This document shows, piece after piece, positions 22,041-38,688 of a stretch of DNA of 64,000 nucleotides. Below the pieces are notes generated by a model. That model saw only the letters and a list, made by a program, of their open reading frames with translations, did no database searches and had not been told where the DNA came from. Origin of the DNA: Eubacterium sp. (lineage in GTDB: Bacteria > Bacillota > Clostridia > Oscillospirales > Acutalibacteraceae); contig JAFUEH010000010.1 of NCBI GenBank assembly GCA_017463985.1, positions 62,001 through 126,000 on the forward strand, written 5' to 3'. A program made the position numbers and the translations under genes. Positions within the stretch are counted from its first letter, which is position 1. Every line of letters begins with the position of its first letter.

Positions 22041-22069
22041 TTGACAAGCGGTGGGTTTAGTGATAGAAT
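22041..22069 (+). promoter_or_regulatory. Promoter of DUF4418/FtsX/ATPase operon
   Basis: TTGACA (22041-22046), a 17-bp spacer and TAGAAT (22064-22069). The shared dyad operator follows immediately. Confidence 0.8.
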
Positions 22070-22077
22070 AAGCAAAT

Positions 22078-22095
22078 AGTTAGCGAGGACTAACC
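22078..22095. promoter_or_regulatory. Shared dyad operator, site 1
   Basis: GTTAG (22079-22083), 6 bp, CTAAC (22090-22094), about 3-19 bases after the expected transcription start, where a bound repressor would block transcription. Confidence 0.65.
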
Positions 22096-22120
22096 AACCT
22101 AATAATAGGAGGCAGTTATT

Positions 22121-22549
22121 ATGAAGCAAAATAAACTAACCCAATATGTGATTCCTGCGATGCTTTTTATTGTGAGCGCTGTGCTTTGCGCGGGCTCCTT
22201 CACTTTTTTAAGGACCTGCGGTCCGATGGAGGACGGCAGCTGGATGACCTGCCACTGGGCAGGACAGGCGATCAGTGCTGTCACCTGTGTGATGGCAATC
22301 CTTGCCTGCGTGAATCTGTTTGTCAAAAACAGCGGTTTCCGTGCCGGTATCAGCTTAGGTCTATTACTGATGTCAGTGACGGCGGCGTTCCTACCGGGCA
22401 AGGTGATTCCGACCTGTATGATGCCGGATATGCAGTGCAATGCGGTTACAAGACCCGGCGTAGCGGTGCTTTGCGCTGTGCTTGCGCTGCTTTCGCTTAT
22501 TAATTTGCTGGTAGCCGTCAAGGGTATTAAAAAGGAAAATAAGGAATGA
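22121..22549 (+). CDS. DUF4418 membrane protein
   Basis: A 142-residue protein with four membrane helices (about 8-28, 46-66, 75-95 and 112-134). Conserved DUF4418 features are the MTCHWAGQA segment (about 42) and the CMMPDMQC segment (about 100), a Cys/Met/His cluster that could bind metal. The family is typically found next to FtsX/ABC exporters, and here it overlaps the permease gene by 4 bp. Function unknown; the operator suggests metal-linked control. Confidence 0.8.
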   Translation: MKQNKLTQYVIPAMLFIVSAVLCAGSFTFLRTCGPMEDGSWMTCHWAGQAISAVTCVMAILACVNLFVKNSGFRAGISLGLLLMSVTAAFLPGKVIPTCMMPDMQCNAVTRPGVAVLCAVLALLSLINLLVAVKGIKKENKE

Positions 22550-23748
22550 ATATTAACACCTTACCGATCAAAAATTTAAAACGCAAATCCGGCAGAAGCG
22601 CTGCGCTGATCGTAGTGGTGATGCTGCTTTCACTCTCGATGCTCGGCGGGTTGCTCGTGGTGGATAGCCTGCAGCAGGGGCTGGACAGTCTTGAAACAAG
22701 GCTCGGCGCGGATATTATCGTGGTTCCCGATGAGGCAAAAAGTAAAAAGGACCTCGAGTCGATCCTGCTCGACGGTGTGCCGGGCTATTTTTACATGGAT
22801 AAAGCCTACTACGATAAGATTGCGGCGCGTGAAGGCATCGGTAGAATATCAGCGCAATACTATCTGGCCTCTACGAAGGCCGGCTGTTGTACAGTACCGG
22901 TGCAGATCATTGGCTTTGATCCGGAAACCGACTTTACGGTGACGCCGTGGATTCAAAAGAGCGGCGGTCGGGAGTTAGGACTGCATGACGTGGTAGCCGG
23001 CTATAATATCAATAAGGCGGTTAGCGGAAAAATACAGTTTTTCGGCGTGGAATGTACGGTCGTTTCTAAGCTGGATAAAACTGGTACGGAGCTGGACAAT
23101 GCTGTATATGCCAATTACGATACGATCAAGGATTTGATCGAGGCCTCTAAAAGCAATAGCTTTCCGTTTTTTTCGCAGCAAAATCCGGATAACATTGTGT
23201 CGTCTGTTTTGATCGATGTAGCCGACGGCTATGAGATAGAGGACGTGGTAGCCGACATCAATATTCATGTCCGCGGTGTAGAGGCGACGGCAACAAAGAG
23301 TATGCTGTCCGGCGTCTCGGACAGCCTGCAGGGCATTTCCAACATCATTAAATTACTCATTGGCGTGATATGGGGCTTACTGCTGGTGATCTTGGTGGTT
23401 GTATTTTCCTCCACAGTCAATGAGCGTAAAAAGGAATTTGCTGTTTTGCGTGTGGCAGGTATGTCGCGCGGTATGTTAGCAAAGACCGTGCTGACGGAGT
23501 CCGCTTTGGTCAGCTTGATCGGCGGCGCGATCGGCGTCGTGCTTTCTGTCGTGATGATTTATCCTTTTAGCACGATCATTGAAAATGAGCTGGGACTGCC
23601 GTTTTTAACACCGCAGCTCCCCCAAATGCTGGTAATGGCGGCGGTGACGCTGCTGCTGACGCTTTGTGCCGGTTCGCTTGCCTCGGCTTATGAGGCGGTG
23701 CAGCTCAGCAAGGTGGACACCGGTCTGATTTTAAGGGAGGGTAACTAA
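22546..23748 (+). CDS. FtsX/MacB-type ABC permease
   Basis: A 400-residue permease with one N-terminal helix (about 18-40), a large extracytoplasmic MacB-like domain (about 45-255) and three C-terminal helices (about 265-290, 315-340 and 360-385) forming the FtsX domain. Such permeases work mechanically on envelope substrates instead of simple import. It overlaps DUF4418 upstream and touches the ATPase downstream, giving a tight three-gene operon. Confidence 0.88.
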   Translation: MNINTLPIKNLKRKSGRSAALIVVVMLLSLSMLGGLLVVDSLQQGLDSLETRLGADIIVVPDEAKSKKDLESILLDGVPGYFYMDKAYYDKIAAREGIGRISAQYYLASTKAGCCTVPVQIIGFDPETDFTVTPWIQKSGGRELGLHDVVAGYNINKAVSGKIQFFGVECTVVSKLDKTGTELDNAVYANYDTIKDLIEASKSNSFPFFSQQNPDNIVSSVLIDVADGYEIEDVVADINIHVRGVEATATKSMLSGVSDSLQGISNIIKLLIGVIWGLLLVILVVVFSSTVNERKKEFAVLRVAGMSRGMLAKTVLTESALVSLIGGAIGVVLSVVMIYPFSTIIENELGLPFLTPQLPQMLVMAAVTLLLTLCAGSLASAYEAVQLSKVDTGLILREGN

Positions 23749-24431
23749 TGAAGCTCTCTGCGCAAGGTATTGCTAAAAAATATCCGAGAAAGCTGAAGGA
23801 CGCGAACTTTTTCTATGCGGTACAGCCAACGGATTTTACACTGGAAAGCGGTGCGGTAACCGAGATCATCGGGCGCAGCGGCAGCGGTAAGACGACGTTG
23901 CTGAATATGCTTTCCGGACTGCTTTCTCCTTCGGAAGGGCAAGTGCTGTTAGACGGTGAAGATCTGTACAGCCAGGAGGATAAGGCGCTTTCTGTGCTGC
24001 GTAATCAGCACCTCGGCGTTGTACCGCAGGGACAGACGGGGCTTAACAGCCTGACAGTGCTGGAAAATGTGCTGCTGCCTTATGCGTTGTATCACAAGGA
24101 TAACGGCGCCGAGGCTTATGCCAAGGAGCTGTTAGAGGCTGTCGGTATTGCAGCGCTTGCTGACGCGTATCCCGATGAGCTGTCCGGCGGTGAGGTACGG
24201 CGGCTGGCAATCGCCAGAGCGCTGATCATGAAGCCGGCGATTATCCTGGCGGATGAACCGACCGGCGATCTGGATGATGAAAATACCGCGGTGGTATTAC
24301 AGCTATTCCGGCGGCTGGCCGACGAGGGTGCTTCCGTGCTGATGGTAACGCATGAGGCCGAGGCCAAGCAGTATGCGGATCATATTTATAAGATGTCATC
24401 GGGTACGTTAGAAAAGGTTAGCGAAGGCTAA
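23748..24431 (+). CDS. ABC ATPase (LolD/MacB class)
   Basis: A 227-residue ATPase with Walker A GRSGSGKTT (about 42), signature LSGGEVRR (about 145), Walker B IILADEPTGDLD (about 165) and H-loop VTHE (about 204). Start and permease stop overlap by one base. It powers the FtsX permease upstream. Confidence 0.9.
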   Translation: MKLSAQGIAKKYPRKLKDANFFYAVQPTDFTLESGAVTEIIGRSGSGKTTLLNMLSGLLSPSEGQVLLDGEDLYSQEDKALSVLRNQHLGVVPQGQTGLNSLTVLENVLLPYALYHKDNGAEAYAKELLEAVGIAALADAYPDELSGGEVRRLAIARALIMKPAIILADEPTGDLDDENTAVVLQLFRRLADEGASVLMVTHEAEAKQYADHIYKMSSGTLEKVSEG

Positions 24432-24449
24432 TTAATTTTAAAAATCCTA

Positions 24450-24478
24450 TTGACAACTTAGATTTTTTATGATATAAA
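24450..24478 (+). promoter_or_regulatory. Promoter of FTR1 operon
   Basis: TTGACA (24450-24455), a 17-bp spacer and TATAAA (24473-24478). Confidence 0.82.
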
Positions 24479-24493
24479 CTTAATCGAATTAAG

Positions 24494-24511
24494 GGTTAGC
24501 AACGGTTAACT
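24494..24511. promoter_or_regulatory. Shared dyad operator, site 2
   Basis: GTTAG (24495-24499), 6 bp, TTAAC (24506-24510); one mismatch from the consensus. It lies just after the expected transcription start. Confidence 0.6.
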
Positions 24512-24512
24512 G

Positions 24513-24535: not shown

Positions 24536-24549
24536 AAAAATGATTAGGA

Positions 24550-24567
24550 AGTTAGCGTATACTAACT
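24550..24567. promoter_or_regulatory. Shared dyad operator, site 3
   Basis: GTTAG (24551-24555), 6 bp, CTAAC (24562-24566), immediately upstream of the ribosome binding site. It is the second copy in the same leader. Confidence 0.65.
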
Positions 24568-24587
24568 GTTGTGGGAGGCGATGATGG

Positions 24588-25982
24588 ATGGCACAGAGAG
24601 TGTCCAATAAACGAATCATAGCATTCCTGTTCGCTGTTTTGGTGGCATTAGTGGCGATCGCTCCGTTCAGTGCTTTTGCTGAAGGGGAGGAGATCGAGCA
24701 TTACGCCACTTGGGAGGAAGCTAAGCCCGTCTATTTTCCGGACAGCACAACGACGAACATGAATGAAGTGGCGTATGCCATTGAGCAGTGTATGAACGCC
24801 GGTCTTGCCAACTATGAGGCAGGCAATATGGACGCTGCTTATAAATGTATGCAGGACGGTTATTACGGCTATTACGAGGTCTGCGGCTTTGAACGGCAGA
24901 CGATGAGCCGTATTTCAGGCGCCCGTAAAAATGAGATCGAGCTGCTCTATAAGGCTTGCCGTCAGGCTGTTAAGAAAGATCAGGGCCTTGACGTGGCGCA
25001 GGCGACGGTAGAGGAGCTGACGACGAAGCTGTATGAGGACGCGCTGCTGTTAAGCCCGACTACGGAGGCTTTTGAAAAGCTGACCGGCTCGGCAGCAGGC
25101 GGTACGACCGTCACGTCCGGTGCTTTCTTCCTGGAAGCGTTCATTATTCTGCTGCGTGAGGGTCTGGAAGCGATCCTGGTTATCGGCGGTATTATTGCAT
25201 ACCTGGTGAAATCCGGTAACAAGAAGAAGCTGAAGCCTGTTTATATCGGCTCTGTGGTGGCAATCGCGTGCAGTGCGCTGGCCACATGGGCGTTGAGTAT
25301 CCTTAAGGCGAAGAGCACGATGTTCGGCGCTTCACAAGAGGTGATCGAGGGCGTTACGGCGCTGCTTGCCGTGATGGTACTGTTCTATGTCAGCAACTGG
25401 ATGCTGAATAAATCCGAAACGGAAACCTGGAACCGTTATATTGACGACAAGGTGGAGGGCTCGGTTTCAAAGGGTAATATGTTTGCGCTTGGCTTTACGG
25501 CGTTCCTCGCTGTATTCCGTGAGGGCGCGGAGGTTATCCTGTTCTATCAGCCGATGCTGGCTGACGCACAGTCGCAGAATATCGGTTCCGGTGCGATCTG
25601 GCTGGGCGTTGTTGCCGCCGTTGCGATCCTGGCAGTTGTCTTTATTGCCATCCGCTTCTTCTCGGTCAAGCTGCCGCTCAAGCCGTTCTTCTTAGCGACC
25701 AGTATCCTGATGGCGATCATGTCGATTGCATTCCTCGGCTCCGGTATCAAGGAACTGCTGGAGGGCGACGCGATCAACCTGTGGAATGTCCATATTCCGA
25801 TTCTGTCAGACCTTGTTGCTAAGATTCCTGAAAACGACGTGCTCGATACCTTCGGTATTTATCCGCATATCGAAACCGTTGTACCGCAGCTGATCCTGCT
25901 TGTGATTACGGTCATTCTGTTTATTATCGCTCAGAAGAAAAACAAGAAGATCAAGAAAGAGGCTGCCGAAAAGGCCGAATAA
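24588..25982 (+). CDS. FTR1-family iron permease (EfeU/FetM-like)
   Basis: The 464-residue protein has a signal peptide (about 1-31), an extracytoplasmic helical domain (about 32-175) and a seven-helix FTR1 permease. The two iron-handling motifs are REGLE at 190-194 and REGAE at 312-316, as expected for a working FTR1 channel. It transports iron across the membrane, typically oxidised iron delivered by a partner. The partner here is the P19-like lipoprotein 69 bp downstream, reproducing the FetM-FetP pair. ATG 24588 has GGAGG 10 nt before it. Two operator copies in the leader predict tight iron control. Confidence 0.92.
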   Translation: MAQRVSNKRIIAFLFAVLVALVAIAPFSAFAEGEEIEHYATWEEAKPVYFPDSTTTNMNEVAYAIEQCMNAGLANYEAGNMDAAYKCMQDGYYGYYEVCGFERQTMSRISGARKNEIELLYKACRQAVKKDQGLDVAQATVEELTTKLYEDALLLSPTTEAFEKLTGSAAGGTTVTSGAFFLEAFIILLREGLEAILVIGGIIAYLVKSGNKKKLKPVYIGSVVAIACSALATWALSILKAKSTMFGASQEVIEGVTALLAVMVLFYVSNWMLNKSETETWNRYIDDKVEGSVSKGNMFALGFTAFLAVFREGAEVILFYQPMLADAQSQNIGSGAIWLGVVAAVAILAVVFIAIRFFSVKLPLKPFFLATSILMAIMSIAFLGSGIKELLEGDAINLWNVHIPILSDLVAKIPENDVLDTFGIYPHIETVVPQLILLVITVILFIIAQKKNKKIKKEAAEKAE

Positions 25983-26051: not shown

Positions 26052-26708
26052 ATGTCAAAGAAAATGAAGAGCATTATCGCCGTTCTGCTTGCTGTAGCTA
26101 TGATCGCTGTTGTATTTGTAGCTTGCTCCAACAAGAACACGAATGACGCTGAGGAGACCACCCCTGCTGCTGAGGATGCGGTTGTTACCGATGCTGCTGA
26201 GGAAGAGGAAGAAGACGCCGGCTTTACCGAAATCCCGATCTTTGAGGATTATGAGTTTGAAGGCTTCTGCAACCTTTCCGCTGTTTACTTCCAGCCGGTT
26301 CCGATGAGCGATGGCACAAAGGCTGAGGATTATGACATCCACCTTGAGGCTGACATCTCTGCTCTTGAGAACGAATTCGGTTATGAGCTTGGCTCTTGGA
26401 TTCCTTATCTGACAGTGGATTACGATGTAATCGGTGCTGACGGCGTTAGCGTTGCTCAGGGTACCTTCATGGAAATGGCTGCTTCTGACGGCCCGCACTA
26501 CGGTGCTAACATTAAGCTTCCTGATGCCGGTACTTACAGCCTGAAGATCACACTTCACAGCCCTGCAGACAACGATTATCTGCTTCATACCGACTCTCTG
26601 ACCGGCCCTGGCGCTCAGTCCTTTGATGAAGTTTTCACCAACGGCGTACTTGAGTACACCTTTGAAGGCTGGAACTACGAAGGTCCTGTGCCGATCCCGG
26701 CTAACTAA
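26052..26708 (+). CDS. P19/Tpd-like iron-binding lipoprotein
   Basis: The 218-residue lipoprotein has a lipobox Cys at residue 25 and an acidic linker (about 30-60), followed by the Tpd/P19 beta-sandwich. The metal ligands of P19 are recognisable: Met in QPVPM, His in DIHLEAD, His in GPHYGAN and His in TLHSP. P19 proteins bind Cu and Fe and feed FTR1 permeases. Start: ATG 26052 after AAAGGAG; the in-frame TTG at 26034 overlaps that site. A terminator follows, so FTR1 and P19 form one unit, with a small AAGAGT hairpin (25994-26014) between them. Confidence 0.9.
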   Translation: MSKKMKSIIAVLLAVAMIAVVFVACSNKNTNDAEETTPAAEDAVVTDAAEEEEEDAGFTEIPIFEDYEFEGFCNLSAVYFQPVPMSDGTKAEDYDIHLEADISALENEFGYELGSWIPYLTVDYDVIGADGVSVAQGTFMEMAASDGPHYGANIKLPDAGTYSLKITLHSPADNDYLLHTDSLTGPGAQSFDEVFTNGVLEYTFEGWNYEGPVPIPAN

Positions 26709-26728
26709 GCGATTATCAATTATACTGA

Positions 26729-26757
26729 AAAGCTGTCCGTTTTCGGACAGCTTTTTT
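26729..26757 (+). terminator. Rho-independent terminator
   Basis: An 11-bp stem (26729-26739 with 26744-26754), a TTTT loop and T6. Confidence 0.9.
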
Positions 26758-26792
26758 GTGCGTATTTTTATTTATATTTATAGAAAAAATTG

Positions 26793-26820
26793 TTGATTTT
26801 TTTTAATAAAGTATTATAAT
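26793..26820 (+). promoter_or_regulatory. Promoter of the DUF2318-to-FrdB operon
   Basis: TTGATT (26793-26798), a 16-bp spacer and a perfect TATAAT (26815-26820). Confidence 0.7.
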
Positions 26821-26824
26821 AGCA

Positions 26825-26848
26825 TTGAGTTATCTATTGCTAACTCAA
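26825..26848. promoter_or_regulatory. Shared dyad operator, site 4
   Basis: Arms TTGAGTTA (26825-26832) and TAACTCAA (26841-26848) are perfectly complementary. The core is GTTAT-N6-CTAAC. It starts 5 bp after the -10 box. Confidence 0.68.
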
Positions 26849-26871: not shown

Positions 26872-28146
26872 ATGCTGAAATACTTGGTGTTATTAACAAG
26901 CGATCTAATGTCGGCAGGGATCATTATCGGAATGCTCTTTGCTTACATAAAATATAATTTCAAGGAAATCGGAAGGAAAATACTGATCGGCGCGTTCGGC
27001 TTCTCAGTCGTCGCGTCTGCCGTGATGACAGCGCTGCTGAATACGCGTAATGCCTTTAGCCAAAAAATGAATATCGGTTATCTGGCGTATATCAATATCA
27101 CCCTATTTGCAATTTTCTTGCTGGCCTATCTCTTGCTGATCGTTTTCGGTATTACGCCGGTTCGCAAAAAGACGAAGGCCGTCGGTGAGATGATCACGTT
27201 TGTGGCAGCGTCGCTGATGATATTTGTGCTTTGCTTTTATAAGCTGCCGACGGTATTTGCCTATCCGTTCCACTTTGATTTGTCGGACAATACCGTCCTG
27301 TCTACCGACTTTATTTACCGTTTTCTTGGCTGTACCTTCGGTTTCCTGCTTTCCCTTATTTCCGCCGTTGCTGCCTATAAGGCTGAAAAGGTGCTAAAGC
27401 AGCCGCTGAATAAGGTTTTCCTGTTTGTGATCATGTTCATTCAGGCATTTTGCTTTGTGGGTACCGGCGTACAGCTGCTGCGGCAGAGAAGGCTGATCCC
27501 GCAGTCAACGCTGGCATTTAAGCTGATCATGCTGGTGAATAACTACTATGAATATTTCATCATTGCGATCGTTGTCGTTGCCTTGATGGCCGCTGTTTAT
27601 CTGTATTTTGATAACCGGAAGGTGAAGGAGGAATATGCCAACTCTGCACAGCTGCGGAAAATTAAGGCACGGATGAGACGGCAAAGACGTTGGTCAGTAG
27701 TGCTGCTGGTGTGCACCGTATTGGCGGTAGTTAACCTGACAGCGATCGATGCCTATAATAACAAAGAGCCTGACGAGGCGCCTGTTGAGGAGTGTATCGA
27801 CGAGGGTGACAACCTGATTGTACCGTACTCCATGGTAGAGGACGGACACCTTCATCGCTTCGGTTACACGACAGAGGATGGCATCCAGGTGAAGTTTATT
27901 GTCGTACAAAAGCCCGGCTCCGCCACTTACGGCGTCGGCCTGGATGCGTGCGATATCTGCGGCGACGCAGGCTATTATGAGAGAGACGATCAGATTGTAT
28001 GCAGACGCTGTGATGTTGTGATGAACAAGAATACCATCGGCTTTAAAGGCGGCTGTAACCCGATCGTGATTGAGTACAGTGTGGAGGACGGACAGATTAT
28101 TGTGCCAAAATCCACGCTGGTGGAACATCAGGATGAGTTTAAGTAA
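26872..28146 (+). CDS. DUF2318 Fe-S-type membrane protein (FlsA/Cj1660-like)
   Basis: The 424-residue protein has about eight membrane helices (1-265), another at about 280-300, and an extracytoplasmic DUF2318 domain. That domain carries CDICG...CRRC (about 358-382) followed by GGCNP; these cysteines are thought to hold a metal or Fe-S centre. DUF2318 proteins are constant companions of FTR1/P19, FtsX permeases and an ATPase in the P19 (Campylobacter) and FetMP-Fls (enterobacterial) iron systems. It opens the long operon under operator site 4. Confidence 0.88.
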   Translation: MLKYLVLLTSDLMSAGIIIGMLFAYIKYNFKEIGRKILIGAFGFSVVASAVMTALLNTRNAFSQKMNIGYLAYINITLFAIFLLAYLLLIVFGITPVRKKTKAVGEMITFVAASLMIFVLCFYKLPTVFAYPFHFDLSDNTVLSTDFIYRFLGCTFGFLLSLISAVAAYKAEKVLKQPLNKVFLFVIMFIQAFCFVGTGVQLLRQRRLIPQSTLAFKLIMLVNNYYEYFIIAIVVVALMAAVYLYFDNRKVKEEYANSAQLRKIKARMRRQRRWSVVLLVCTVLAVVNLTAIDAYNNKEPDEAPVEECIDEGDNLIVPYSMVEDGHLHRFGYTTEDGIQVKFIVVQKPGSATYGVGLDACDICGDAGYYERDDQIVCRRCDVVMNKNTIGFKGGCNPIVIEYSVEDGQIIVPKSTLVEHQDEFK

Positions 28147-28158: not shown

Positions 28159-29448
28159 ATGTTTTTACGAATGGTAAGAGGCGCACTCTTCCGTCAAAAG
28201 GGCAAAATGCTGATGATTGCATTTACCATTCTGCTCGGCGCTTCGCTGGCAACGGCCATGCTGAACGTCATGCTGGATGTAGGCGATAAGGTCAATCAGG
28301 AGCTGAAGGCTTACGGTGCCAATATTACGGTTGTTCCTAAGGAAAACAGCGTGATCGACGATATCTATGAATTAGAGGGCGATGACCGTGATGAAATCAA
28401 AAGCGCCTACCTCAAAGAGGAGGAGCTCGGTAAAATAAAAACGATTTTCTGGGCCTTTAATATTGTTGATTTTGCGCCGTTTATTGATTCGACCGTCACG
28501 CTCAACGGTACGGATGTGACGGTGGTCGGCTCATGGTATAACCACCACCTGGCTTTGCCGACCGGCGAGGAGTTGGACACCGGTGTAACGAACCTCCGCT
28601 CGTGGTGGGAGATCACGGACGGCGAATGGCTGGACGAGCAAAAAAATGAAAATGGCGTGATGGTCGGTACACTATTGGCTGCCTCGCAAGGAATACACGT
28701 AGGCGATACGATTACACTCTCCGGTAAAGCGGCGCAGAAGGAGCTGCAGGTTGTCGGTATCTTCGATTGCGGTTCGGATGAGGATAATCAGCTGTTCACC
28801 TCGCTCGATAATGCGCAGCTGCTGTCCGGAACGGACGGACTGTTATCCAGTATTGAAGTCAGTGCGCTGACAACGCCTGATAACGAATTAGCCAGAAAAG
28901 CGGCCAAGGATCCTAGCTCGCTTTCTATTGCCGACTATGAAACCTGGTATTGTACCGCGTATGCCAGCTCGATCTGTTATCAGATTCAGGAGGTCATCAC
29001 GGATTCCGTCGCTTCTCCTGTACGGCAGGTGGCAGAGTCGGAAGGTGCGATCATGGAAAAAACCGAGCTGCTGATGATATTAATTACGATTTTGTCGTTG
29101 GTCGGCTCTGCGCTGGGTATTTCTAACCTGGTAACGGCGAGCGTGATGGAGCGCTCTAACGAAATCGGCCTGTTGAAGGCGGTCGGTGCAAAGGACGGCG
29201 CGGTGTCGGCGCTGGTGCTGACAGAAATTATGATCACCGCGATTATCGGCGGTGTGGCTGGCTATTTCCTGGGCTACGGCTTTGCTCAAATTATCGGCCA
29301 AACCGTGTTTGGCTCGGCAATCGAGATGAAGCTGCTGGTGATTCCGATCGTAGCGGTGCTGATCGTTGTGGTGACGCTGTTCGGCAGTATTCCTGCCATC
29401 AGAACACTCCTGCGCATGAAGCCGGCGGAGGTATTACACGGCCGTTAA
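28159..29448 (+). CDS. FtsX-type permease 1 (FlsB/C-like)
   Basis: A 429-residue permease with an N-terminal helix (about 15-38), an extracytoplasmic MacB-like domain (about 40-300) and three C-terminal helices with the conserved GLLKAVGAKDG cytoplasmic loop. It sits 12 bp after DUF2318, as in Campylobacter cj1660-cj1661. It is probably paired with the second permease and the following ATPase. Confidence 0.88.
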   Translation: MFLRMVRGALFRQKGKMLMIAFTILLGASLATAMLNVMLDVGDKVNQELKAYGANITVVPKENSVIDDIYELEGDDRDEIKSAYLKEEELGKIKTIFWAFNIVDFAPFIDSTVTLNGTDVTVVGSWYNHHLALPTGEELDTGVTNLRSWWEITDGEWLDEQKNENGVMVGTLLAASQGIHVGDTITLSGKAAQKELQVVGIFDCGSDEDNQLFTSLDNAQLLSGTDGLLSSIEVSALTTPDNELARKAAKDPSSLSIADYETWYCTAYASSICYQIQEVITDSVASPVRQVAESEGAIMEKTELLMILITILSLVGSALGISNLVTASVMERSNEIGLLKAVGAKDGAVSALVLTEIMITAIIGGVAGYFLGYGFAQIIGQTVFGSAIEMKLLVIPIVAVLIVVVTLFGSIPAIRTLLRMKPAEVLHGR

Positions 29449-31837: not shown

Positions 31838-32329
31838 ATGAAAGCAGTAGCGCGCTGGCTGATGCGTATTGCGGTGCTGGTGCTGATTCTCGGAATTCCG
31901 TTTACGGCCTTAGGCGGTATGTCGTTACTGCGCAGCGACGGCGCCGACGCGGTTTCTTCCGCTACCGCTTATACCTTTGATCCGAACGATGTGTCGGGGG
32001 AATATGTCGTCTTTATTAATAATGAGCGCCATCCGGACACGTTGATGGTATGGGAGTCATTCTTTAAGGGAGAGGATATTCCTGTTGTGCTCGACGATAT
32101 ATCATGCCTGATTTGTAACGGCGATACGTTGGCGGCGGACTATGCTGAGATTTGTCAGGCCAGGCTGCCTGAAAATCAAATGACGGTAAAAAGCGATACC
32201 AGCCTGTTGGTGTTGTCAAAGGGTGAATACAGACAGTTTGACATTATTATTTTGTCAAAGGAGCTGGCGGAGGCCTACGGGGCTGAATCTGTCAGCGGTC
32301 AGGGTATCACAACGGTAAATGTAATATGA
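31838..32329 (+). CDS. Unknown membrane-anchored extracytoplasmic protein
   Basis: A 163-residue protein with an N-terminal helix (about 8-30) and an extracytoplasmic domain of about 130 residues that contains an SCLIC cysteine pair (near residue 90) and a third Cys soon after (near 108). I do not recognise a family. It lies 2 bp after the FMN lipoprotein and overlaps the next gene by 4 bp, so it is an integral part of the operon and probably a partner in the electron-transfer module. It is not homologous in any visible way to thioredoxin-like proteins that end the P19 operon elsewhere, though the Cys pair could play a similar redox role. Confidence 0.7.
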   Translation: MKAVARWLMRIAVLVLILGIPFTALGGMSLLRSDGADAVSSATAYTFDPNDVSGEYVVFINNERHPDTLMVWESFFKGEDIPVVLDDISCLICNGDTLAADYAEICQARLPENQMTVKSDTSLLVLSKGEYRQFDIIILSKELAEAYGAESVSGQGITTVNVI

Positions 32330-32865
32330 GAAAAGCGAACGCAGTTATCAGCCATTGTATTTTGGTGTTGTTTTTAATACACGGTGTGCTGGGAGCCTTC
32401 AACCTGATGGGTGTAGGCTCTGTTACGACGCGCGTGATTGCATGGACGATGGTCGGATTGATCGCGGTTCATACCGTTTTGGGGACCGTTCTGACGGCAC
32501 AGACGCTGCAGGCGCAGAAACGGGCCGGTACCGCCTATTGGAAGGAAAATAGGCTGTTTTGGGCCAGACGCCTCAGCGGTTTTGTGATCATGGTGCTGAT
32601 CTGTTTTCATATCCTTGCGTTCAGCGGCGTGAGCGCTGCCCATTATCGCTTGCCGCAGTTTGATGTATTTCAGCTGATTACGCAAATATTGCTGGTGCTT
32701 GCGATCGCTTTTCATGTTATCACTAATGTCAAACCGATGCTGATTTCGTTCGGCATCAAGCGGCTGAAGCCGCGGGTCAATGACTTGGTGTTTTGGATTG
32801 CGGCGTTATTACTGGTGATGGCAATCGCCTTTATCCTGTACTATGTAAGGTGGCGCGCAGTATGA
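32326..32865 (+). CDS. Cytochrome-b-like five-helix membrane protein
   Basis: A 179-residue protein with five membrane helices (about 5-27, 34-56, 80-100, 115-135 and 155-175). Histidines sit inside or at the ends of helices (10, 19, 48, about 95, about 106 and about 129), as in di-heme cytochrome b anchors of succinate dehydrogenase/fumarate reductase. The two following genes are the flavoprotein and Fe-S subunits of such a complex, which supports this role. No sequence match to a named family is claimed. It overlaps genes on both sides by 4 bp. Confidence 0.65.
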   Translation: MRKANAVISHCILVLFLIHGVLGAFNLMGVGSVTTRVIAWTMVGLIAVHTVLGTVLTAQTLQAQKRAGTAYWKENRLFWARRLSGFVIMVLICFHILAFSGVSAAHYRLPQFDVFQLITQILLVLAIAFHVITNVKPMLISFGIKRLKPRVNDLVFWIAALLLVMAIAFILYYVRWRAV

Positions 32866-34427
32866 GAAAGATTAATATTATCGGCGCAGGCTTGGCCGGC
32901 CTTTCGGCAGCGATCCATCTGGCGCAAGAGGGAATTGCCTGTCGGTTGATCTCTTTGCAGCCGTCAGAGCGTGCGCAATCGGTGATGGCAGAGGGCGGTA
33001 TCAATGCGGCGCTGAACACAATGGGCGAGGAAGATACCGTAGAGCAGCACTTTGCGGATACTGTCCGCGGCGGCGCTTACCTTGCTGATGAAAATGCCGT
33101 TCAAGGGTTAACGGAGCATGCGCCTGAAATCGTTCGGCGGTTGTGCTCCATAGGCGTTCCTTTTAATAGAAAGGGACAGGAGCTGGTTTTGCGTAATTTC
33201 GGCGGACAAAAGAAAAAGCGTACTGCCTATTCTAAGAGCAGCACCGGTAAAATATTAATGTCCGCACTAATTGACGAGGCGAGGAAATATGAGGCAAAGG
33301 GCTTGATTAAACGCTATCCTCATCATTGCTTGACCTCTCTTATCATTGAAAATAACGCCTGTATCGGCGTTGAAATAACGGATTTGTATACCGGAAATGA
33401 AGGAAAGCTCTACGGCGCTGTTATTCTGGCAAGCGGCGGCATGAACAGCTTGTTCCCTGAAATGACTACCGGTACGGCGGTCAATACCGGCGACGCTACC
33501 GCAATCGCCTTTTCACAGGGCGTAGAGCTTGCGAATCTGGAATTTATTCAATATCATCCTACTACCGCCGCGATTGCCGGAAAGCGTATGTTGATTTCTG
33601 AGGCGGCGCGCGGCGAAGGCGGAAGATTATATGTATGGGAAAATAATCAACCATATTATTTTATGGAAGAGAAATACCCTGAGCTTGGCAATTTAATGCC
33701 GCGTGATGTTATTTCACGAGAGATGATAAAAACCGGAAAACAGGTTTATCTTGAAATGGCCGGAATCCCTTCCGAGGCTTGGAGCCGTCTTTCGGATTTG
33801 AGAGACGAATGTATCCGCCTTTTGGGCGTTGACCCTCACGGCTGCGCGATTGAGGTCTCTCCGGGTATTCACTATTTTATGGGCGGCATCTATGTTGATG
33901 AAAAGCACCGAACCAGCCTGAGCGGACTTTTTGCCGCCGGCGAATGTGCGTGCCAATACCACGGAGCGAACCGCTTAGGCGGTAACTCTATGCTCGGCGC
34001 GATATACGGCGGAAGCGTGGCGGCTGAGAGCGCATCAGCGTATATCGGAAATTCGGCGGTGAAGGAGCCGGAATGGAACGAAAAGCACCAAAGCAGGCTT
34101 CTCAACGATTATGCCGTTAACGATGAGGTGGCGAAAATATTGAGAGACGCCCTCGGTATTTTCAGAACAGAGGAAACGCTTGTCAAAGCGCTGAATGATT
34201 TAAATACGCTCGATAGCAGCGGCTATTCGGAAAATGATAAAAAACGCCTTGAAGTTGCGAAGGCAATGGTGATGTCTGCACTCAACCGAAAAGAGAGCAG
34301 AGGCGCTCATACGAGAACGGATTATCCCGAAACCTCGGAGGCGTTTCAAAAAACGACGGTAGTGCAGTATCAAAACGGAAACATTACCCTCTCAATGCGC
34401 GATATTGCAAGGAGGGTTGCCGAATGA
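32862..34427 (+). CDS. Fumarate reductase-like flavoprotein subunit
   Basis: A 521-residue flavoprotein of the FrdA/SdhA/NadB family: the dinucleotide-binding GAGLAGLSAA at the N terminus, MAEGGINAAL, EFIQYHPTT, SEAARGEGG, MPRDVISRE, the catalytic-site HYFMGGI, the NRLGGNSML FAD loop and the C-terminal ESRGAHTRTDYP. Substrate-binding His and Arg residues appear intact. The His that binds FAD covalently in membrane fumarate reductases is Gln here (RAQSVMAEGG where FrdA has RSHTVAAEGG), so FAD is probably non-covalent, as in L-aspartate oxidase. The frame from 32793 is longer, but ATG 32862 overlaps the upstream stop and is the likely start. No NAD genes are adjacent, arguing against NadB. Confidence 0.85.
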   Translation: MRKINIIGAGLAGLSAAIHLAQEGIACRLISLQPSERAQSVMAEGGINAALNTMGEEDTVEQHFADTVRGGAYLADENAVQGLTEHAPEIVRRLCSIGVPFNRKGQELVLRNFGGQKKKRTAYSKSSTGKILMSALIDEARKYEAKGLIKRYPHHCLTSLIIENNACIGVEITDLYTGNEGKLYGAVILASGGMNSLFPEMTTGTAVNTGDATAIAFSQGVELANLEFIQYHPTTAAIAGKRMLISEAARGEGGRLYVWENNQPYYFMEEKYPELGNLMPRDVISREMIKTGKQVYLEMAGIPSEAWSRLSDLRDECIRLLGVDPHGCAIEVSPGIHYFMGGIYVDEKHRTSLSGLFAAGECACQYHGANRLGGNSMLGAIYGGSVAAESASAYIGNSAVKEPEWNEKHQSRLLNDYAVNDEVAKILRDALGIFRTEETLVKALNDLNTLDSSGYSENDKKRLEVAKAMVMSALNRKESRGAHTRTDYPETSEAFQKTTVVQYQNGNITLSMRDIARRVAE

Positions 34428-35110
34428 AATATACCATTAACGTTTTACGCAGACGTTCGTCTTCGGATTCTCCGCAATGGAAAAGCTATTTCTTTGAGAC
34501 GGAGAAACAGGGCGCTACGGTAGCAACCGCATTAACGGCCTTGAATCAAGAGCTGGACGAAAAAATTATGTGGGAGTGCTCCTGCCTGCAAAAGAAATGC
34601 GGCGCCTGCGCTATGGTGATTAACGGAAGACCGCAACTTGCCTGTGACGCGCGGCTGACGGATTTTAAAACAAACACCATTTCCGTTGAGCCTTTACGCA
34701 AGTTTCCGGTTATCGCCGATTTGGTAGTTGACAGAAGTGTGCTGTATGAAAACTTAGCCCTGATTGGCGCCTTTCTGAGCAGCGACGTCAGCGTGAAGGA
34801 AAAGCAGACGGACTTTTTGTATGAGGCGTCACGCTGCTTGCAATGCGGCTGCTGTTTAGAAATCTGCCCGAATTTTTATTCCGGCGGAGCCTTCTTCGGA
34901 ATGGCGGCGATGGCGCCGGTTTCCCGATTATTGGAGGAGCTGCCGTCAAGCGAGCAAAGGGCGTTGAGAAAAAAATACCAAAAGCATATTTATAGCGGCT
35001 GCGGCAAATCGCTGGCCTGCCGTGATATTTGCCCGGCAGGGTTAGATATGGAACGGCTGTTGGTCAACTCCAATGCCATAGCGCTGTGGAAATATTTGCT
35101 GAAAAAATAA
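34424..35110 (+). CDS. Fumarate reductase-like iron-sulfur subunit
   Basis: A 228-residue protein with a plant-type [2Fe-2S] domain (cysteines in ECSCLQKKCGAC and later LAC, about residues 51-75), then a ferredoxin domain with CLQCGCCLEICP (about 138-149) and a CGKSLACRDICP cluster (about 191-203). This is the FrdB/SdhB layout, linking the flavoprotein to a membrane quinone or heme subunit. It overlaps the flavoprotein by 4 bp and ends the operon at a terminator. Confidence 0.88.
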   Translation: MKYTINVLRRRSSSDSPQWKSYFFETEKQGATVATALTALNQELDEKIMWECSCLQKKCGACAMVINGRPQLACDARLTDFKTNTISVEPLRKFPVIADLVVDRSVLYENLALIGAFLSSDVSVKEKQTDFLYEASRCLQCGCCLEICPNFYSGGAFFGMAAMAPVSRLLEELPSSEQRALRKKYQKHIYSGCGKSLACRDICPAGLDMERLLVNSNAIALWKYLLKK

Positions 35111-35132
35111 AGGCTTCACGCCTTTGTTTTTT
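35109..35132 (+). terminator. Terminator of the iron/electron-transfer operon
   Basis: A 6-bp stem (35109-35114 with 35120-35125), a 5-nt loop, then G and T6. The left arm overlaps the frdB-like stop codon. Confidence 0.7.
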
Positions 35133-35139
35133 GAAAAAG

Positions 35140-35171
35140 AAGTTAGCGGCAGCTAACTTTGACAATATCAT
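35140..35171. promoter_or_regulatory. Shared dyad operator, site 5, with putative promoter
   Basis: A perfect palindrome AAGTTAGC-GGCA-GCTAACTT (35140-35159) is the best copy of the series. The nearest -10 candidate is TATCAT (35166-35171), whose -35 would lie inside the operator; an alternative is TTGAAA (35131-35136)-N17-TAACTT. Either way the operator overlaps the core promoter. Confidence 0.65.
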
Positions 35172-35195
35172 TATTATTATGAAAAAGGAGTTAGT

Positions 35196-35897
35196 ATGAG
35201 CTTTGTAACCATTAGCGGCATCAAAAAGCATTACGGAGAGGGCGACAGCTTTGTGCAGGCGCTGGACGGCATTGACCTGGATATTGAAAAGGGCGAGGTT
35301 TGCGTGCTGCTCGGACCGTCCGGCTCCGGTAAGTCGACGCTGTTGAACATCATCGGCGGTATCGAATCGGCCGATCAGGGCGATATTGCCATTGACGGAG
35401 AAAAAATTAAGTTTATGAGCGAAAAAAGACTGACGCAGTACCGTCGTAAGCACCTTGGATACGTGTTCCAGTCGTATAACCTGATTCCGAATCTGAGCGT
35501 GCGTGAAAATATTGAGGTTGGCGCTTATCTTGGCAGCGATACGCTCGATGTGGATGAGCTGATGCAGACGCTCGGTATCTATGAACAAAAGGATAAACTG
35601 CCGTCACAGCTGTCTGGCGGTCAGCAGCAGCGCACCTCCATCGGCAGAGCGATCGTAAAAAATCCTGACATCCTGTTGTGTGATGAGCCTACTGGCGCGC
35701 TGGATTACCATACCTCTAAGGAGATCCTGAAATTGATTGAGGAGGTCAATCAAAAATACGGTAACACCGTTATCATGGTAACACACAACGATGCGATTAA
35801 AAACATGGCCGACCGCGTGTTTACGCTGAAGGATGGCAGAATTATTGACAACTATACGAATGAGCATAAGGTACCGGCTGCGGAGCTGGAATGGTAA
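35196..35897 (+). CDS. ABC ATPase (MacB/LolD class)
   Basis: A 233-residue ATPase: Walker A GPSGSGKST (about 40), VFQSYNL Q-loop, LSGGQQQR (about 142), Walker B ILLCDEPTGALD (about 162) and VTHND. It is translationally coupled to the giant FtsX permease downstream (overlap of 7 bp). Operator site 5 is directly upstream, placing it in the same putative iron regulon. Confidence 0.9.
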   Translation: MSFVTISGIKKHYGEGDSFVQALDGIDLDIEKGEVCVLLGPSGSGKSTLLNIIGGIESADQGDIAIDGEKIKFMSEKRLTQYRRKHLGYVFQSYNLIPNLSVRENIEVGAYLGSDTLDVDELMQTLGIYEQKDKLPSQLSGGQQQRTSIGRAIVKNPDILLCDEPTGALDYHTSKEILKLIEEVNQKYGNTVIMVTHNDAIKNMADRVFTLKDGRIIDNYTNEHKVPAAELEW

Positions 35898-38638
35898 TGG
35901 TAATGCGTAAGAGAAATCCTTTAAATAAGCGTTTTAAGAAGGAATTGAAGAGCGATTGCGGTAAGTATATTGCTATGTTCCTGTTTTTAGTATTTTTTAT
36001 CGGCGCGATGTCCGGCTTTTTTGTGACGGACAATTCTGTGGCTGCCAACTATTATGAAAGCCAGATCGTATATAAAGTAGAGGATGGGCATATTGCCTTT
36101 AATACTGAACCGGAGGAAGCAGTCCTTGAGCAGATCGCGTCGCAAAACGGACTCACGCTCTATAACCTGTTCTATAAGGAAGAAAGCATCAGCGAGCTGT
36201 CGAATACGGTACGTATCTACGCAGACAGGGAAGAGGTTAATTTGGAATCGGTGCTTAGCGGTCGGATGCCGGAGACGGCTGACGAGATTGCCCTTGATCG
36301 AATGTATGCCGACAATAACGGCGTCAAGGTGGGGGATAAGGTCACAATCCGTGATCAGATCTATACCGTGTCGGGGCTGATCGCTGTACCGGACTATTCC
36401 TGTTTGTTTGAAAGTAATTCCGATATGATGTTTGACGCCATCAATTTTGGTGTTGCGGTGATGAGCCGAGAGGGCTTTGCAGCGCTCAGTGACGCACATT
36501 TGACGTATAATTATGCTTACCGATATAACGATCCGCTGACAGACGATACGGACGCAAATACGCGTTCCGAGGCACTGATCGACTCGCTGGAGACGATCCT
36601 CAAGGCTTATGATGAGCCGCTGATTCAGGCACAGGTGGACAGCATCTACGAGGAAGCACGTGGCACGATTGAAGCTTTAACGGAAGAATTTGAAACAGCC
36701 GGTAATGAGCTGGAAACGAAAATACGCGCTGCTATGCGTCAGGCCGGTATGATGAATACTGCCGGTATTGCTGCAGCCCTCGGCACAACGGAGGAGCGGT
36801 ACAATGCGATGATGGATGCCTTTGAAGAGGCGGAAAGCATGGAGGCGGATTTTGACCTTGATGCACTGGAGACAGCGCCAACCGTCAGTCTGGACGATTA
36901 TGAAAACGAGGCCGGCTTTGACGCTAAGCTGAACGAAGCGATGGATACGGTCTATAAGATTATCGATGCCGTGGAGGCGACAGGATTGTATGATTGTACG
37001 TCGATTCGGCAGCATCTTGACACACTTGACGGTATGCTGGATTTCGACATTGACGACAGCGGTATTTTAACGGTGGAGGACTATAATCCGCGTTATACGA
37101 ATAAAGCCATTGCCTTTGTCATCGAGGACTCGACCTCTGACAAGGCATCCGCCACGCTGATGCTGTACATCATTATTGCCGTGATTGCCTTTGTGTTTGC
37201 CGTTACCGCTGCGAACACGATCAGCCGAGAGGCGAACGTGATCGGTACGCTGCGTGCGTCCGGCTATTCGCGCGGTGAGCTGATACGTCACTATATGTTT
37301 CTGCCACTGCTGATCACACTGGTTGCGGCACTGGTGGGTAATGTGCTCGGTTATACCGTTTTTCAAAAAATGTTTATTCAGGTGTATTACGGAAACTACT
37401 CGTTGACGGAATATAAGGTGCTGTGGAACGGCGATGCGTTTATCAGAACGACGGTAGTCCCGCTCTTACTGATGCTCATTATCAATTTTGCGGTGCTTCA
37501 TGCGAAGCTCAAAATTTCACCGCTTCATTTTTTGCGCGGCGAATTGAAAAAGAAAAGCAAAAAGTCCGTGATGAAGCTACCGAAAAGGATGCCGTTCATG
37601 GCGAAATTCAGAATCAGGATCTTGTTCCAAAACCTGCCGTCTTACCTGACGCTGCTCGTCGGTATCGTACTGGGAGGTATGCTGGTAATCTTTGGTACCA
37701 TGTTCGGTCCGCTGATACAGGACTATACTGCGCTGGTGAACGAAACAAAGCTGTCAAGCTATCAGTATATCCTGAAGGAAGAGGTCGAAACTGCCGATCC
37801 GTCTGCAGAAACATACTGCGTGACGTCACTCGAAACGATGTATAATCAATATATGACTGACGACGTGATGATTTACGGTATTAACAGCGACAGCCAATAT
37901 GTTAAGGCGGCGATTCCGACCGGCGAAGTACTGTTATCCAACGGTATGATGGATAAGTTTGGTCTCAAGGAGGGCGATACCGTTGATCTGAAAGAGCCTT
38001 ATGGCAGCACGGTGTACAGCTTTAAGATCGCAGGGCAGTATCAGTATGACGCAGCCCTATCCGTATTTATGAATCGCAGTGATTACCTCACCATGTTCAA
38101 TAAGGACGCCGATTATTTCACAGGCTATTTCAGCAATGAGCCGCTGACCGATATCGATGAGGACGCCATTGTCACGGTGATTACAGAGGCTGATTTAATC
38201 AAAATCGTGACGCAGCTGGAATCCTCTATGCTGGAGTTTATGAGCGTATTTAAGGCGCTGGGTGTCGTGATCTTCCTACTATTGATGTATATTCTCACGA
38301 AGCAAATCATTGAGAAGAATACCAAGTCCATTGCCATGACAAAAATCCTTGGTTTTACGGATATGGAGATCGGCAGGCTTTACCTGGTGATTACCTCCTT
38401 TGCTGTGCTGGCCTCCTTGCTGCTGGCGATCCCGATCGTAGACGCGCTGCTGCGGTGGATGTTCCATTCCTATATGTATACCGAAATGACCGGTTATATT
38501 CCCTATATTCCCAGTCAGTCAAGCTATCTGACCATGGTGGTGCTCGGCGTCGTCTGTTATGCGGTGGTGGCCGCCGGCATGATGATTAAAATTAAGCGCA
38601 CACCAAAGGGAGAAGCCTTGAAAAATCAGTCGTTGTAA
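35891..38638 (+). CDS. Large FtsX-family permease
   Basis: A 915-residue permease: N-terminal helix (about 18-42), an extracytoplasmic region with a helical insertion (about 230-400, rich in Glu/Ala), three helices forming FtsX domain 1 (about 415-540), another helix (about 590-615), a second extracytoplasmic domain (about 620-770) and a second set of three helices (about 790-905). This duplicated layout occurs in ABC exporters that move lipoproteins, peptides or envelope material. Three in-frame ATG codons (35891, 35897 and 35903) compete as starts. A bidirectional terminator follows. Confidence 0.85.
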   Translation: MVMVMRKRNPLNKRFKKELKSDCGKYIAMFLFLVFFIGAMSGFFVTDNSVAANYYESQIVYKVEDGHIAFNTEPEEAVLEQIASQNGLTLYNLFYKEESISELSNTVRIYADREEVNLESVLSGRMPETADEIALDRMYADNNGVKVGDKVTIRDQIYTVSGLIAVPDYSCLFESNSDMMFDAINFGVAVMSREGFAALSDAHLTYNYAYRYNDPLTDDTDANTRSEALIDSLETILKAYDEPLIQAQVDSIYEEARGTIEALTEEFETAGNELETKIRAAMRQAGMMNTAGIAAALGTTEERYNAMMDAFEEAESMEADFDLDALETAPTVSLDDYENEAGFDAKLNEAMDTVYKIIDAVEATGLYDCTSIRQHLDTLDGMLDFDIDDSGILTVEDYNPRYTNKAIAFVIEDSTSDKASATLMLYIIIAVIAFVFAVTAANTISREANVIGTLRASGYSRGELIRHYMFLPLLITLVAALVGNVLGYTVFQKMFIQVYYGNYSLTEYKVLWNGDAFIRTTVVPLLLMLIINFAVLHAKLKISPLHFLRGELKKKSKKSVMKLPKRMPFMAKFRIRILFQNLPSYLTLLVGIVLGGMLVIFGTMFGPLIQDYTALVNETKLSSYQYILKEEVETADPSAETYCVTSLETMYNQYMTDDVMIYGINSDSQYVKAAIPTGEVLLSNGMMDKFGLKEGDTVDLKEPYGSTVYSFKIAGQYQYDAALSVFMNRSDYLTMFNKDADYFTGYFSNEPLTDIDEDAIVTVITEADLIKIVTQLESSMLEFMSVFKALGVVIFLLLMYILTKQIIEKNTKSIAMTKILGFTDMEIGRLYLVITSFAVLASLLLAIPIVDALLRWMFHSYMYTEMTGYIPYIPSQSSYLTMVVLGVVCYAVVAAGMMIKIKRTPKGEALKNQSL

Positions 38639-38655
38639 ACCGGACAGATAAAAGA

Positions 38656-38688
38656 AAAACAGTGACGGAGCAAATCCGTCACTGTTTT
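38656..38688. terminator. Bidirectional terminator
   Basis: A perfect 14-bp stem (38656-38669 with 38675-38688), a 5-nt loop, with A4 on the left and T4 on the right. It separates the convergent FtsX and minus-strand rex operons. Confidence 0.88.

What the first reader, a model, noticed from the sequence alone, without database searches (positions are those of the whole stretch)
22041..38688. Four adjacent operons forming one putative iron regulon built around FTR1/P19
Seen: four consecutive transcription units, each with its own promoter or operator and terminator, share the same dyad and encode FTR1 permease, P19-like lipoprotein, DUF2318, four FtsX permeases, three ABC ATPases and a redox module. 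Known: FTR1-P19-DUF2318-FtsX-FtsX-ATPase is the P19/FetMP-Fls iron uptake core of some proteobacteria. Inference: a Gram-positive version has been enlarged with two further FtsX exporters and an electron-transfer complex.
Basis: partly seen in the sequence, partly recalled or inferred. Interest (0 to 1): 0.85.

Follow-up and report, generated by a model that had tools for sequence, protein, structure and literature searches.

The report
Iron-uptake operons with flavin-linked fumarate reductase
A gut-type anaerobe carries a known kind of ferrous-iron importer whose main operon also encodes a fumarate reductase and two probable flavin-carrying surface proteins, suggesting a way to dispose of the electrons of iron uptake without oxygen.

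Summary
The four units are real. They encode an FTR1/P19/FtrD/FtsX-FtsX-ATPase/FMN iron importer, the kind described as bfeUO/sifABCDE in Bifidobacterium, so a Gram-positive version is already known. Operators GTTAGC-N4-GCTAAC head every unit; the genome gave one DtxR-family hit and no Fur hit, and three operators stand at a flavodoxin unit. DUF4418-FtsX-ATPase recurs in such loci; ATPase-FtsX(915 aa) was seen only here. The new part is ORF163-SdhC-FrdA-FrdB behind the FMN lipoprotein. Seven of 52 P19/FtrD genomes hold it beside the cluster (6 physically, 1 at a contig edge). SdhC has five predicted helices and four invariant histidines; FrdA keeps fumarate-site residues but not the covalent-FAD histidine; ORF163 (divergent DUF6921) carries a flavinylation-like motif on a predicted flexible tether. 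No UbiA prenyltransferase (quinone synthesis) was found in 10 of 10 module genomes tested; ApbE was found in 7 of 7 tested. Best reading: electrons of Fe(II) uptake run through flavins and haems to fumarate. Direction and iron control are inferred; the module also occurs without P19, and no ferrochelatase was found.

The parts
22041..22069 (+). sigma-70-like promoter of unit 1 (TTGACA-17-TAGAAT)
   Evidence: 11 of 12 matches; consensus match only
22079..22094 (.). operator, exact GTTAGCGAGGACTAAC
22121..22549 (+). DUF4418 membrane protein (Cys/Met/His-rich loops seen by eye)
   Evidence: PF14387 1.1e-24; recurs in P19 loci
22546..23748 (+). FtsXa, FtsX-type permease
   Evidence: PF02687; recurs
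23748..24431 (+). ATPa, ABC ATPase partner of FtsXa
   Evidence: PF00005
24495..24510 (.). operator, 1 mismatch
24551..24566 (.). operator, exact
24588..25982 (+). FTR1-family iron permease with two REXXE motifs
   Evidence: PF03239 2.4e-28; motifs
26052..26708 (+). P19 (Iron_transport) lipoprotein
   Evidence: PF10634 2.1e-41; lipoprotein signal by eye
26727..26756 (+). intrinsic terminator of unit 2
   Evidence: fold of 26712-26775, -22.2 kcal/mol; not listed
26793..26820 (+). sigma-70-like promoter of unit 3
   Evidence: 10 of 12 matches
26829..26844 (.). operator of unit 3, 1 mismatch
26872..28146 (+). FtrD-like membrane protein with CxxC-x13-CxxC-x14-C
   Evidence: PF10080 3.6e-30; motif
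28159..29448 (+). FtsXb permease
   Evidence: PF02687, PF12704
29506..30690 (+). FtsXc permease
   Evidence: PF02687, PF12704
30704..31405 (+). ATPb, ABC ATPase
   Evidence: PF00005
31395..31835 (+). FMN_bind lipoprotein with strict flavinylation motif in DAISGAT (31755-31775)
   Evidence: PF04205 2.6e-11; motif; lipoprotein signal by eye
31838..32329 (+). ORF163: N-terminal helix, flexible tether with DAVSSAT (31946-31966), alpha/beta domain; divergent DUF6921
   Evidence: no Pfam hit of its own
32326..32865 (+). SdhC-like membrane anchor, 5 long helices, 4 invariant His (19, 49, 95, 130)
   Evidence: (Sdh_cyt below cut-off)
32862..34427 (+). FrdA-like flavoprotein, active-site residues kept, covalent-FAD His replaced by Gln39
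34424..35110 (+). FrdB-like protein with three Fe-S cysteine motifs
35109..35132 (+). terminator-like hairpin and T run of unit 3
   Evidence: fold of 35100-35140, -14.2 kcal/mol
35142..35157 (.). operator of unit 4, exact
35196..35897 (+). ATPc, ABC ATPase; same operator, not a regular member of P19 loci
35891..38638 (+). FtsXd, 915-aa double-FtsX permease; same operator, found in no other P19 locus examined
38655..38689 (.). terminator of unit 4, symmetric hairpin
   Evidence: (listed for the - strand)

Best explanation
An iron-limitation regulon for ferrous-iron import in an anaerobe. P19 and FTR1 bind and translocate iron, assisted by FtrD, the FtsXb/FtsXc/ATPb transporter and the DUF4418/FtsXa/ATPa set. 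FTR1-type permeases are thought to take iron through coupled to Fe(II) oxidation; without O2 the electrons need another sink. Here they are proposed to pass from the extracytoplasmic side (P19/FtrD) to the FMN lipoprotein, then to a flavin on the flexible arm of ORF163 at the outer membrane face, through two haems of the SdhC-like protein, into FrdB and FrdA, where fumarate is reduced to succinate in the cytoplasm. A DtxR-type repressor at GTTAGC-N4-GCTAAC probably switches the four units on when iron is scarce. Shown: gene content, operator sharing, gene overlap, recurrence and linkage of the module, conserved motifs, no UbiA hit. Inferred: flavinylation of ORF163, haem binding, direction of electron flow, coupling to iron import, repressor identity, response to iron.
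For: Iron system: PF03239, PF10634, PF10080, PF04205 hits; the six-gene core in 34 of 34 loci with at least 5 kb on both sides (these loci were chosen by FtrD or P19). Control: operators before each unit; 12 exact sites in the genome, three of them at a flavodoxin/DUF3793 unit (flavodoxin replaces ferredoxin in iron-poor settings, passage of PMC8238504); one DtxR-family hit and no FUR hit. Module belongs to the system: directly behind FMN in the window, L057, L073, L076, L077; on the opposite strand beside the cluster in L112 (Pyramidobacter) and L124 (Acidaminococcaceae). Of 52 P19/FtrD genomes, 7 hold the SdhC clade at 237 bits or more: linked in 6 (in L077 the contig begins at FtrD), and in the seventh (G637) its contig begins FMN-ORF163-SdhC-FrdA; the 6 were in the profile, so the test is that no other genome of the 52 showed a high-scoring unlinked copy. 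In L124 all 3 operator matches (0.21 expected, 0 of 200 shuffles reach 3) lie in the divergent promoter region of the module. No quinone partner: UbiA 0 of 8 (7 module genomes plus G051) against 14 of 14 controls, and none in G500, G400, G311, so 10 of 10 module genomes tested. ApbE in 8 of 8 (the same set). Conduit: 5 long helices and 4 invariant His in 7 of 7. ORF163: D, A and A of D-A-x-[ST]-x-A-[ST] invariant in 10 of 10, motif on a low-confidence stretch between TM helix and domain. Direction: fumarate-site residues invariant and the covalent-FAD His replaced by Gln in 7 of 7. [quoted passage not shown] this module would supply one.
Against: 44 of 52 P19/FtrD genomes showed no SdhC match (many are draft assemblies), so the module is not needed for import itself. 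It also stands alone without P19: G500, G400 and G311 have it and gave no P19 hit, two of them beside a metal P-type ATPase; and G254 (L124) has a second, partial, unlinked copy on another contig. In the class draw P19 (7 of 391) and the module (4 of 391 at 174 bits or more) overlap only in the query genome. UbiA is absent from 252 of 391 class genomes anyway, so that absence is common; G311 is only 73% complete. Ferrochelatase was found in 0 of 8 module genomes (8 of 14 controls), so haem for SdhC must come from uptake or another route. The window ORF163 motif is SSAT, not the strict [S/T]GA[S/T]; only 5 of 10 rows are strict. Fe(II) to FMN may be uphill unless the ferric product is tightly bound (recalled). 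No expression or uptake data. The structure models are of middling confidence (pLDDT 74 and 79) and could not be searched by fold.
Confidence: 0.48

Rival explanations
1. The flavins serve as an assimilatory ferric reductase: electrons flow outward to reduce Fe(III) so that Fe(II) can be imported.
For: PMC8238504 (passages) suggests that FMN or thioredoxin partners of P19 could engage in redox chemistry like assimilatory iron reductases; FMN potentials suit it (recalled).
Against: The only cytoplasmic redox subunits in the operon are of fumarate-reductase type; no NAD(P)H:flavin reductase family was hit, though FrdA shows the usual weak Rossmann-type hits; loss of the covalent-FAD His fits fumarate reduction rather than succinate oxidation (the biochemical meaning is recalled).
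Confidence: 0.17
2. FrdAB-SdhC with ORF163 is an ordinary fumarate-respiration complex fed by scavenged quinones or by another extracytoplasmic flavoprotein (the genome has Rnf-like genes), and sits in the iron operon for unrelated reasons or by chance.
For: The module occurs without P19 in G500, G400, G311; Rnf-like genes, judged by eye, lie around apbE in the same genome; it is the only long FrdA in the genome.
Against: Beside the FtrD/FTR1 cluster in the 6 genomes where contigs allow the check, and consistent in a seventh, in two lineages by a different arrangement, once under its own copies of the operator; an Fe-S- and haem-rich complex is normally repressed, not induced, when iron is short (recalled).
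Confidence: 0.25
3. The redox module matures or repairs a cofactor of the importer (for example FtrD clusters or thiols) in place of the thioredoxins of Gram-negative P19 clusters.
For: Many Gram-negative clusters lack the FMN gene but carry thioredoxin-like genes (PMC8238504, PMC6083913, passages).
Against: A complete fumarate-reducing complex is more than a thiol pathway needs; no thioredoxin or DsbD Pfam hit in unit 3.
Confidence: 0.1

Closest known systems
Bifidobacterium breve bfeUO / sifABCDE (PMC5449479, passages)
   Same: Iron-permease unit with a terminator, then a unit of an eight-helix membrane protein, two FtsX permeases, an ATPase and an FMN-binding protein; both induced by iron limitation there. 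That bfeO is P19 and sifA is FtrD is inferred; a Bifidobacteriaceae locus (L082) has FTR1-P19-FtrD-FtsX-FtsX-ATPase
   Different: No FrdAB, SdhC or ORF163 in the passages seen; a different putative operator sequence
P19-FMN clusters, mostly Gram-positive (PMC8238504, passages)
   Same: P19, FTR1 and an FMN-binding protein with [S/T]GA[S/T] motif
   [quoted passage not shown] here one is encoded
Campylobacter jejuni 1649-1656 (PMC6083913, passages) and Bordetella/Brucella FtrABCD (PMC11966278, passages)
   Same: FTR1, P19, FtrD (DUF2318) and, in Campylobacter, FtsX-FtsX-ATPase
   Different: Thioredoxins or a cupredoxin instead of FMN protein and fumarate reductase
Quinol:fumarate reductase / succinate dehydrogenase (PDB 1qlb, 6lum, 9lay)
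   Same: FrdA, FrdB and a membrane anchor with conserved His; five helices and two haems in type-B anchors are recalled
   Different: Short divergent anchor, no covalent-FAD His, no UbiA in the hosts tested, partner ORF163
DUF6921 (PF21914), PDB 3noh
   Same: ORF163-like proteins of G500 (L148), G311 (L150) and L112 score over its cut-off; the 3noh chain begins at the VTGAT motif
   Different: Window member gives no hit to the Pfam model; no paper on it

Membership tests
P19/FTR1 iron importer (bfeUO-sif type) | FTR1 permease with REXXE motifs | tested here: met
   PF03239 2.4e-28; REGLE and REGAE
P19/FTR1 iron importer (bfeUO-sif type) | P19 iron-binding protein | tested here: met
   PF10634 2.1e-41
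P19/FTR1 iron importer (bfeUO-sif type) | FtrD with CxxC-x13-CxxC-x14/15-C, then FtsX-FtsX-ATPase-FMN in order | tested here: met
   motif from PMC6083913 passage
P19/FTR1 iron importer (bfeUO-sif type) | Induction by iron limitation and iron uptake | not testable with these tools
   only operator sharing, and a flavodoxin unit with the same operator
DtxR-type iron regulon | DtxR-family repressor in the genome, no Fur | tested here: met
   1 PF02742 hit, 0 FUR hits
DtxR-type iron regulon | Repressor binds this palindrome | not testable with these tools
   none
Succinate dehydrogenase/fumarate reductase | Flavoprotein active-site residues | tested here: met
   H232, R281, H337, R371 invariant in 7 of 7 (roles recalled from E. 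coli FrdA)
Succinate dehydrogenase/fumarate reductase | Covalent FAD histidine | tested here: not met
   Gln39, invariant in 7 of 7, aligns with His in the RSHT of 6lum SdhA (its FAD role recalled)
Succinate dehydrogenase/fumarate reductase | Three Fe-S cysteine motifs in the B subunit | tested here: met
Succinate dehydrogenase/fumarate reductase | Quinone as partner | tested here: inconclusive
   no UbiA hit in 10 of 10 module genomes tested, but scavenged quinones not excluded
Dihaem anchor (type B SdhC) | Five helices and four haem His | tested here: met
   haem itself not testable
ApbE-flavinylated proteins | [S/T]GA[S/T] motif in an extracytoplasmic FMN-binding protein, ApbE in the genome | tested here: met
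   FMN lipoprotein SGAT; ApbE hit
ApbE-flavinylated proteins | Same motif in ORF163 | tested here: inconclusive
   strict in L057, L073, L148, L149, L150 (5 of 10); G replaced by S or A in window, L076, L077, L112, L124
DUF6921 | Score over the Pfam cut-off | tested here: not met
   window member no hit; linked only by profiles, hhalign 92%, E 6.8e-7, and by taking the top 5 of 1277 frames at the same gene position

The most novel reading that the evidence does not exclude
ORF163/DUF6921 plus SdhC plus FrdAB is a further class of transmembrane electron conduit for flavinylated proteins: a quinone-free fumarate reductase fed by a flavin on a swinging arm outside the membrane. In this lineage it has been recruited to an FTR1/P19 importer so that Fe(II) oxidation, which drives the permease in aerobes with O2, is driven by fumarate in anaerobes.
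Probability: 0.33. Interest if true: 0.85.

Novelty: new variant of a known kind. Interest (0 to 1): 0.62.

Why it matters
The role of the FMN or thioredoxin partners of FTR1/P19 importers is described as not defined (PMC8238504, passages). Finding a complete candidate membrane electron path to fumarate in the same operon turns that into a testable proposal for oxygen-free ferrous-iron import, and points to DUF6921-SdhC-FrdAB as a quinone-free fumarate reductase in anaerobes without quinone synthesis genes.

Tried and rejected
Rejected: that both extra FtsX sets are one enlargement (FtsXa recurs, FtsXd does not). Rejected: that the module is exclusive to iron loci (G500, G400, G311). Rejected as a marker: short FtrD-like proteins (frames of 169-244 aa in 13 genomes of the family, plus a 101-aa fragment); their 14 fetched loci L058-L071 gave no FTR1, P19 or FtsX hit. 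Led nowhere: co-occurrence in a class draw, too few positives. Genome-wide operator counts with one mismatch are below the reversed control (24 against 44), so only exact sites were interpreted outside the window. L057 has 3 operator matches (0.17 expected); L148, a module locus without P19, has none; L073 and L076 show related but differently spaced repeats upstream of FTR1 and DUF4418, which I did not model. ATPa counts are low because some ATPa were labelled as other ATPases. Fold comparison was not obtained. Papers: PMC8238504, PMC5449479, PMC6083913, PMC11966278 and PMC7701253 were seen as search passages only; all others as listings. Library searches behind 'not found in print' for the FrdAB link; for DUF6921 or 3noh: (its 8 listings were unrelated chemistry papers).

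Full report
WHAT IS THERE. The region 22041-38688 holds sixteen genes on the + strand in four units: DUF4418, FtsXa, ATPa; FTR1, P19; FtrD, FtsXb, FtsXc, ATPb, an FMN_bind lipoprotein, ORF163, an SdhC-like anchor, FrdA, FrdB; and ATPc, FtsXd. Hairpins with T runs end units 2, 3 and 4; none was seen after unit 1. In unit 3 the genes from ATPb to FrdB overlap or abut (junctions -11, +2, -4, -4, -4), so the redox genes very likely share one transcript with the FtsX transporter.

REGULATION. The dyad GTTAG-N6-CTAAC stands before every unit (6 matches with at most one mismatch, 1.34 expected, 0 of 100 shuffles reach 6). The genome has 12 exact sites; with one mismatch allowed the count (24) is below the reversed control (44), so only exact sites were interpreted elsewhere. 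The base after GTTAG is C in 14 of 14 sites tabulated (12 exact, 2 near), though the pattern leaves it free. Of the other exact sites, three stand between a flavodoxin/DUF3793/ABC unit and an ATC_hydrolase-family gene, one before an ATPase with an 824-aa FtsX protein, four at three places before methyltransferase genes, and one before a further ATC_hydrolase-like gene judged by eye. The genome gave one DtxR-family hit and no FUR hit. Iron control by a DtxR-type repressor is therefore likely but not shown.

CONSERVATION. A scan with FtrD gave 52 loci; with two further family genomes, four class genomes and the window, 59 were typed. Of 34 with at least 5 kb on both sides, 34 have FTR1, P19, FtrD, FtsXb, FtsXc and ATPb; 16 have FMN, 13 DUF4418, 16 FtsXa, 6 the ORF163-SdhC-FrdA-FrdB module, 1 FtsXd. 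Outside Synergistota (my sorting, by record title) the figures are 12 of 12 for FMN and FtsXa, 11 of 12 for DUF4418 and 5 of 12 for the module; inside, 4, 4, 2 and 1 of 22. A gene that looks DtxR-like by eye (cluster c5) lies in 22 loci, 21 of them Synergistota, mostly next to ATPb. So DUF4418-FtsXa-ATPa is a regular partner outside Synergistota, the module an occasional one, and FtsXd was found only here.

THE REDOX MODULE. It lies behind FMN in the window, L057, L073, L076 and L077, and on the other strand beside the cluster in L112 (Pyramidobacter) and L124 (Acidaminococcaceae). Of 52 P19/FtrD genomes searched (50 of the 52 loci, plus G051 and G043), 8 matched the SdhC profile. Seven scored 237 bits or more: six of these were in the profile and are linked on one contig (in L077 the contig begins at FtrD); the seventh, G637, has a contig that begins FMN-ORF163-SdhC-FrdA. 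The eighth (54.7 bits) is a weaker, unlinked SdhC-like protein, and G254 has in addition a partial second copy on another contig. In L124 three operator matches, and no others in the locus, lie between the module and the exbB-like gene (by eye) upstream of FTR1. Against exclusivity: in 391 class genomes the SdhC clade appears at 174 bits or more in G500, G400 and G311 besides the query genome, and those three gave no P19 hit; there ORF163 carries a strict DAVTGAT and, in two, the neighbours are a metal P-type ATPase and an ArsR-like gene (by eye). A tree of 17 FrdA rows needs two changes for the P19-linked label, with L112 among unlinked rows at moderate support (92/92); one origin is not ruled out.

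HOW IT COULD WORK. SdhC has four invariant histidines in 7 of 7, five long predicted helices (pLDDT 74) and weak similarity to the anchors of 6lum (3.1e-4) and 9lay (0.0046): a dihaem-type anchor, by inference. FrdA keeps the fumarate-site residues; the position of the histidine that carries FAD covalently in relatives is Gln in 7 of 7; that this favours fumarate reduction is recalled. FrdB keeps its cluster motifs. ORF163 has a TM helix, a low-confidence tether with the motif D-A-x-[ST]-[SGA]-A-[TS], then an alpha/beta domain (pLDDT 79). Its divergent relatives include DUF6921 proteins and PDB 3noh (the 3noh hit comes from a profile that includes DUF6921 members). The FMN lipoprotein has the strict motif. 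ApbE was found in 8 of 8 genomes and UbiA in 0 of 8 (7 with the module, plus G051); UbiA was also not found in G500, G400 and G311, though 252 of 391 class genomes lack it too. The picture is a quinone-free fumarate reductase taking electrons from outside flavins. Since FTR1 permeases are thought to be driven by Fe(II) oxidation (PMC11966278, passages), the simplest use in an iron operon is to accept those electrons. It is the only long FrdA in this genome; the next match is a 444-aa frame of 231 bits.

WEAK POINTS. 44 of 52 such genomes showed no SdhC match; the module exists without the importer; no ferrochelatase was found in 8 of 8 module genomes, so the haem source is unknown; the window motif SSAT is not strict; the redox step from Fe(II) to FMN may be unfavourable; nothing here is measured. 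Fold searches could not be run.

COMPARISON. The importer is of the bfeUO/sifABCDE kind (PMC5449479, passages) and belongs with the P19-FMN clusters of PMC8238504 (passages), which are placed there among clusters lacking a core membrane electron-transfer system. The fumarate-reductase link did not appear in the searches made. I rate it a new variant of a known kind.

Noticed in passing
L017 (own genome C10) 4135-5947: Three exact operators between a flavodoxin/DUF3793/two-ABC-protein unit and a divergent ATC_hydrolase-family gene: probably another iron-regulated locus.
   Followed up: partly
L018 (own genome C11) 1453-4679: A second ATPase plus large FtsX permease (824 aa) with an exact operator, a parallel to ATPc-FtsXd of the window.
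   Followed up: no
L016 4059, L020 5108, L021 5197 and 5231: Exact operators upstream of methyltransferase genes; unexplained members of the putative iron regulon.
   Followed up: no
L073 395-5278: Directly upstream of the iron cluster: ApbE, a 748-aa protein with repeated flavinylation motifs, a small FMN-type protein and a NapH-like (PF12801) Fe-S membrane protein.
   Followed up: partly
L148 7504-13610 and L149: ORF163-SdhC-FrdA-FrdB without P19, next to a metal P-type ATPase and an ArsR-like regulator (by eye): a second context for the module.
   Followed up: partly
L169 (genome of L124, contig C72): A second, partial SdhC-FrdA copy close to that of G500/G400; could be a transfer or contamination of the assembly.
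   Followed up: no
window 39385-43284: Rex-like redox regulator next to isocitrate dehydrogenase and aconitase genes just downstream of the region (judged by eye).
   Followed up: no
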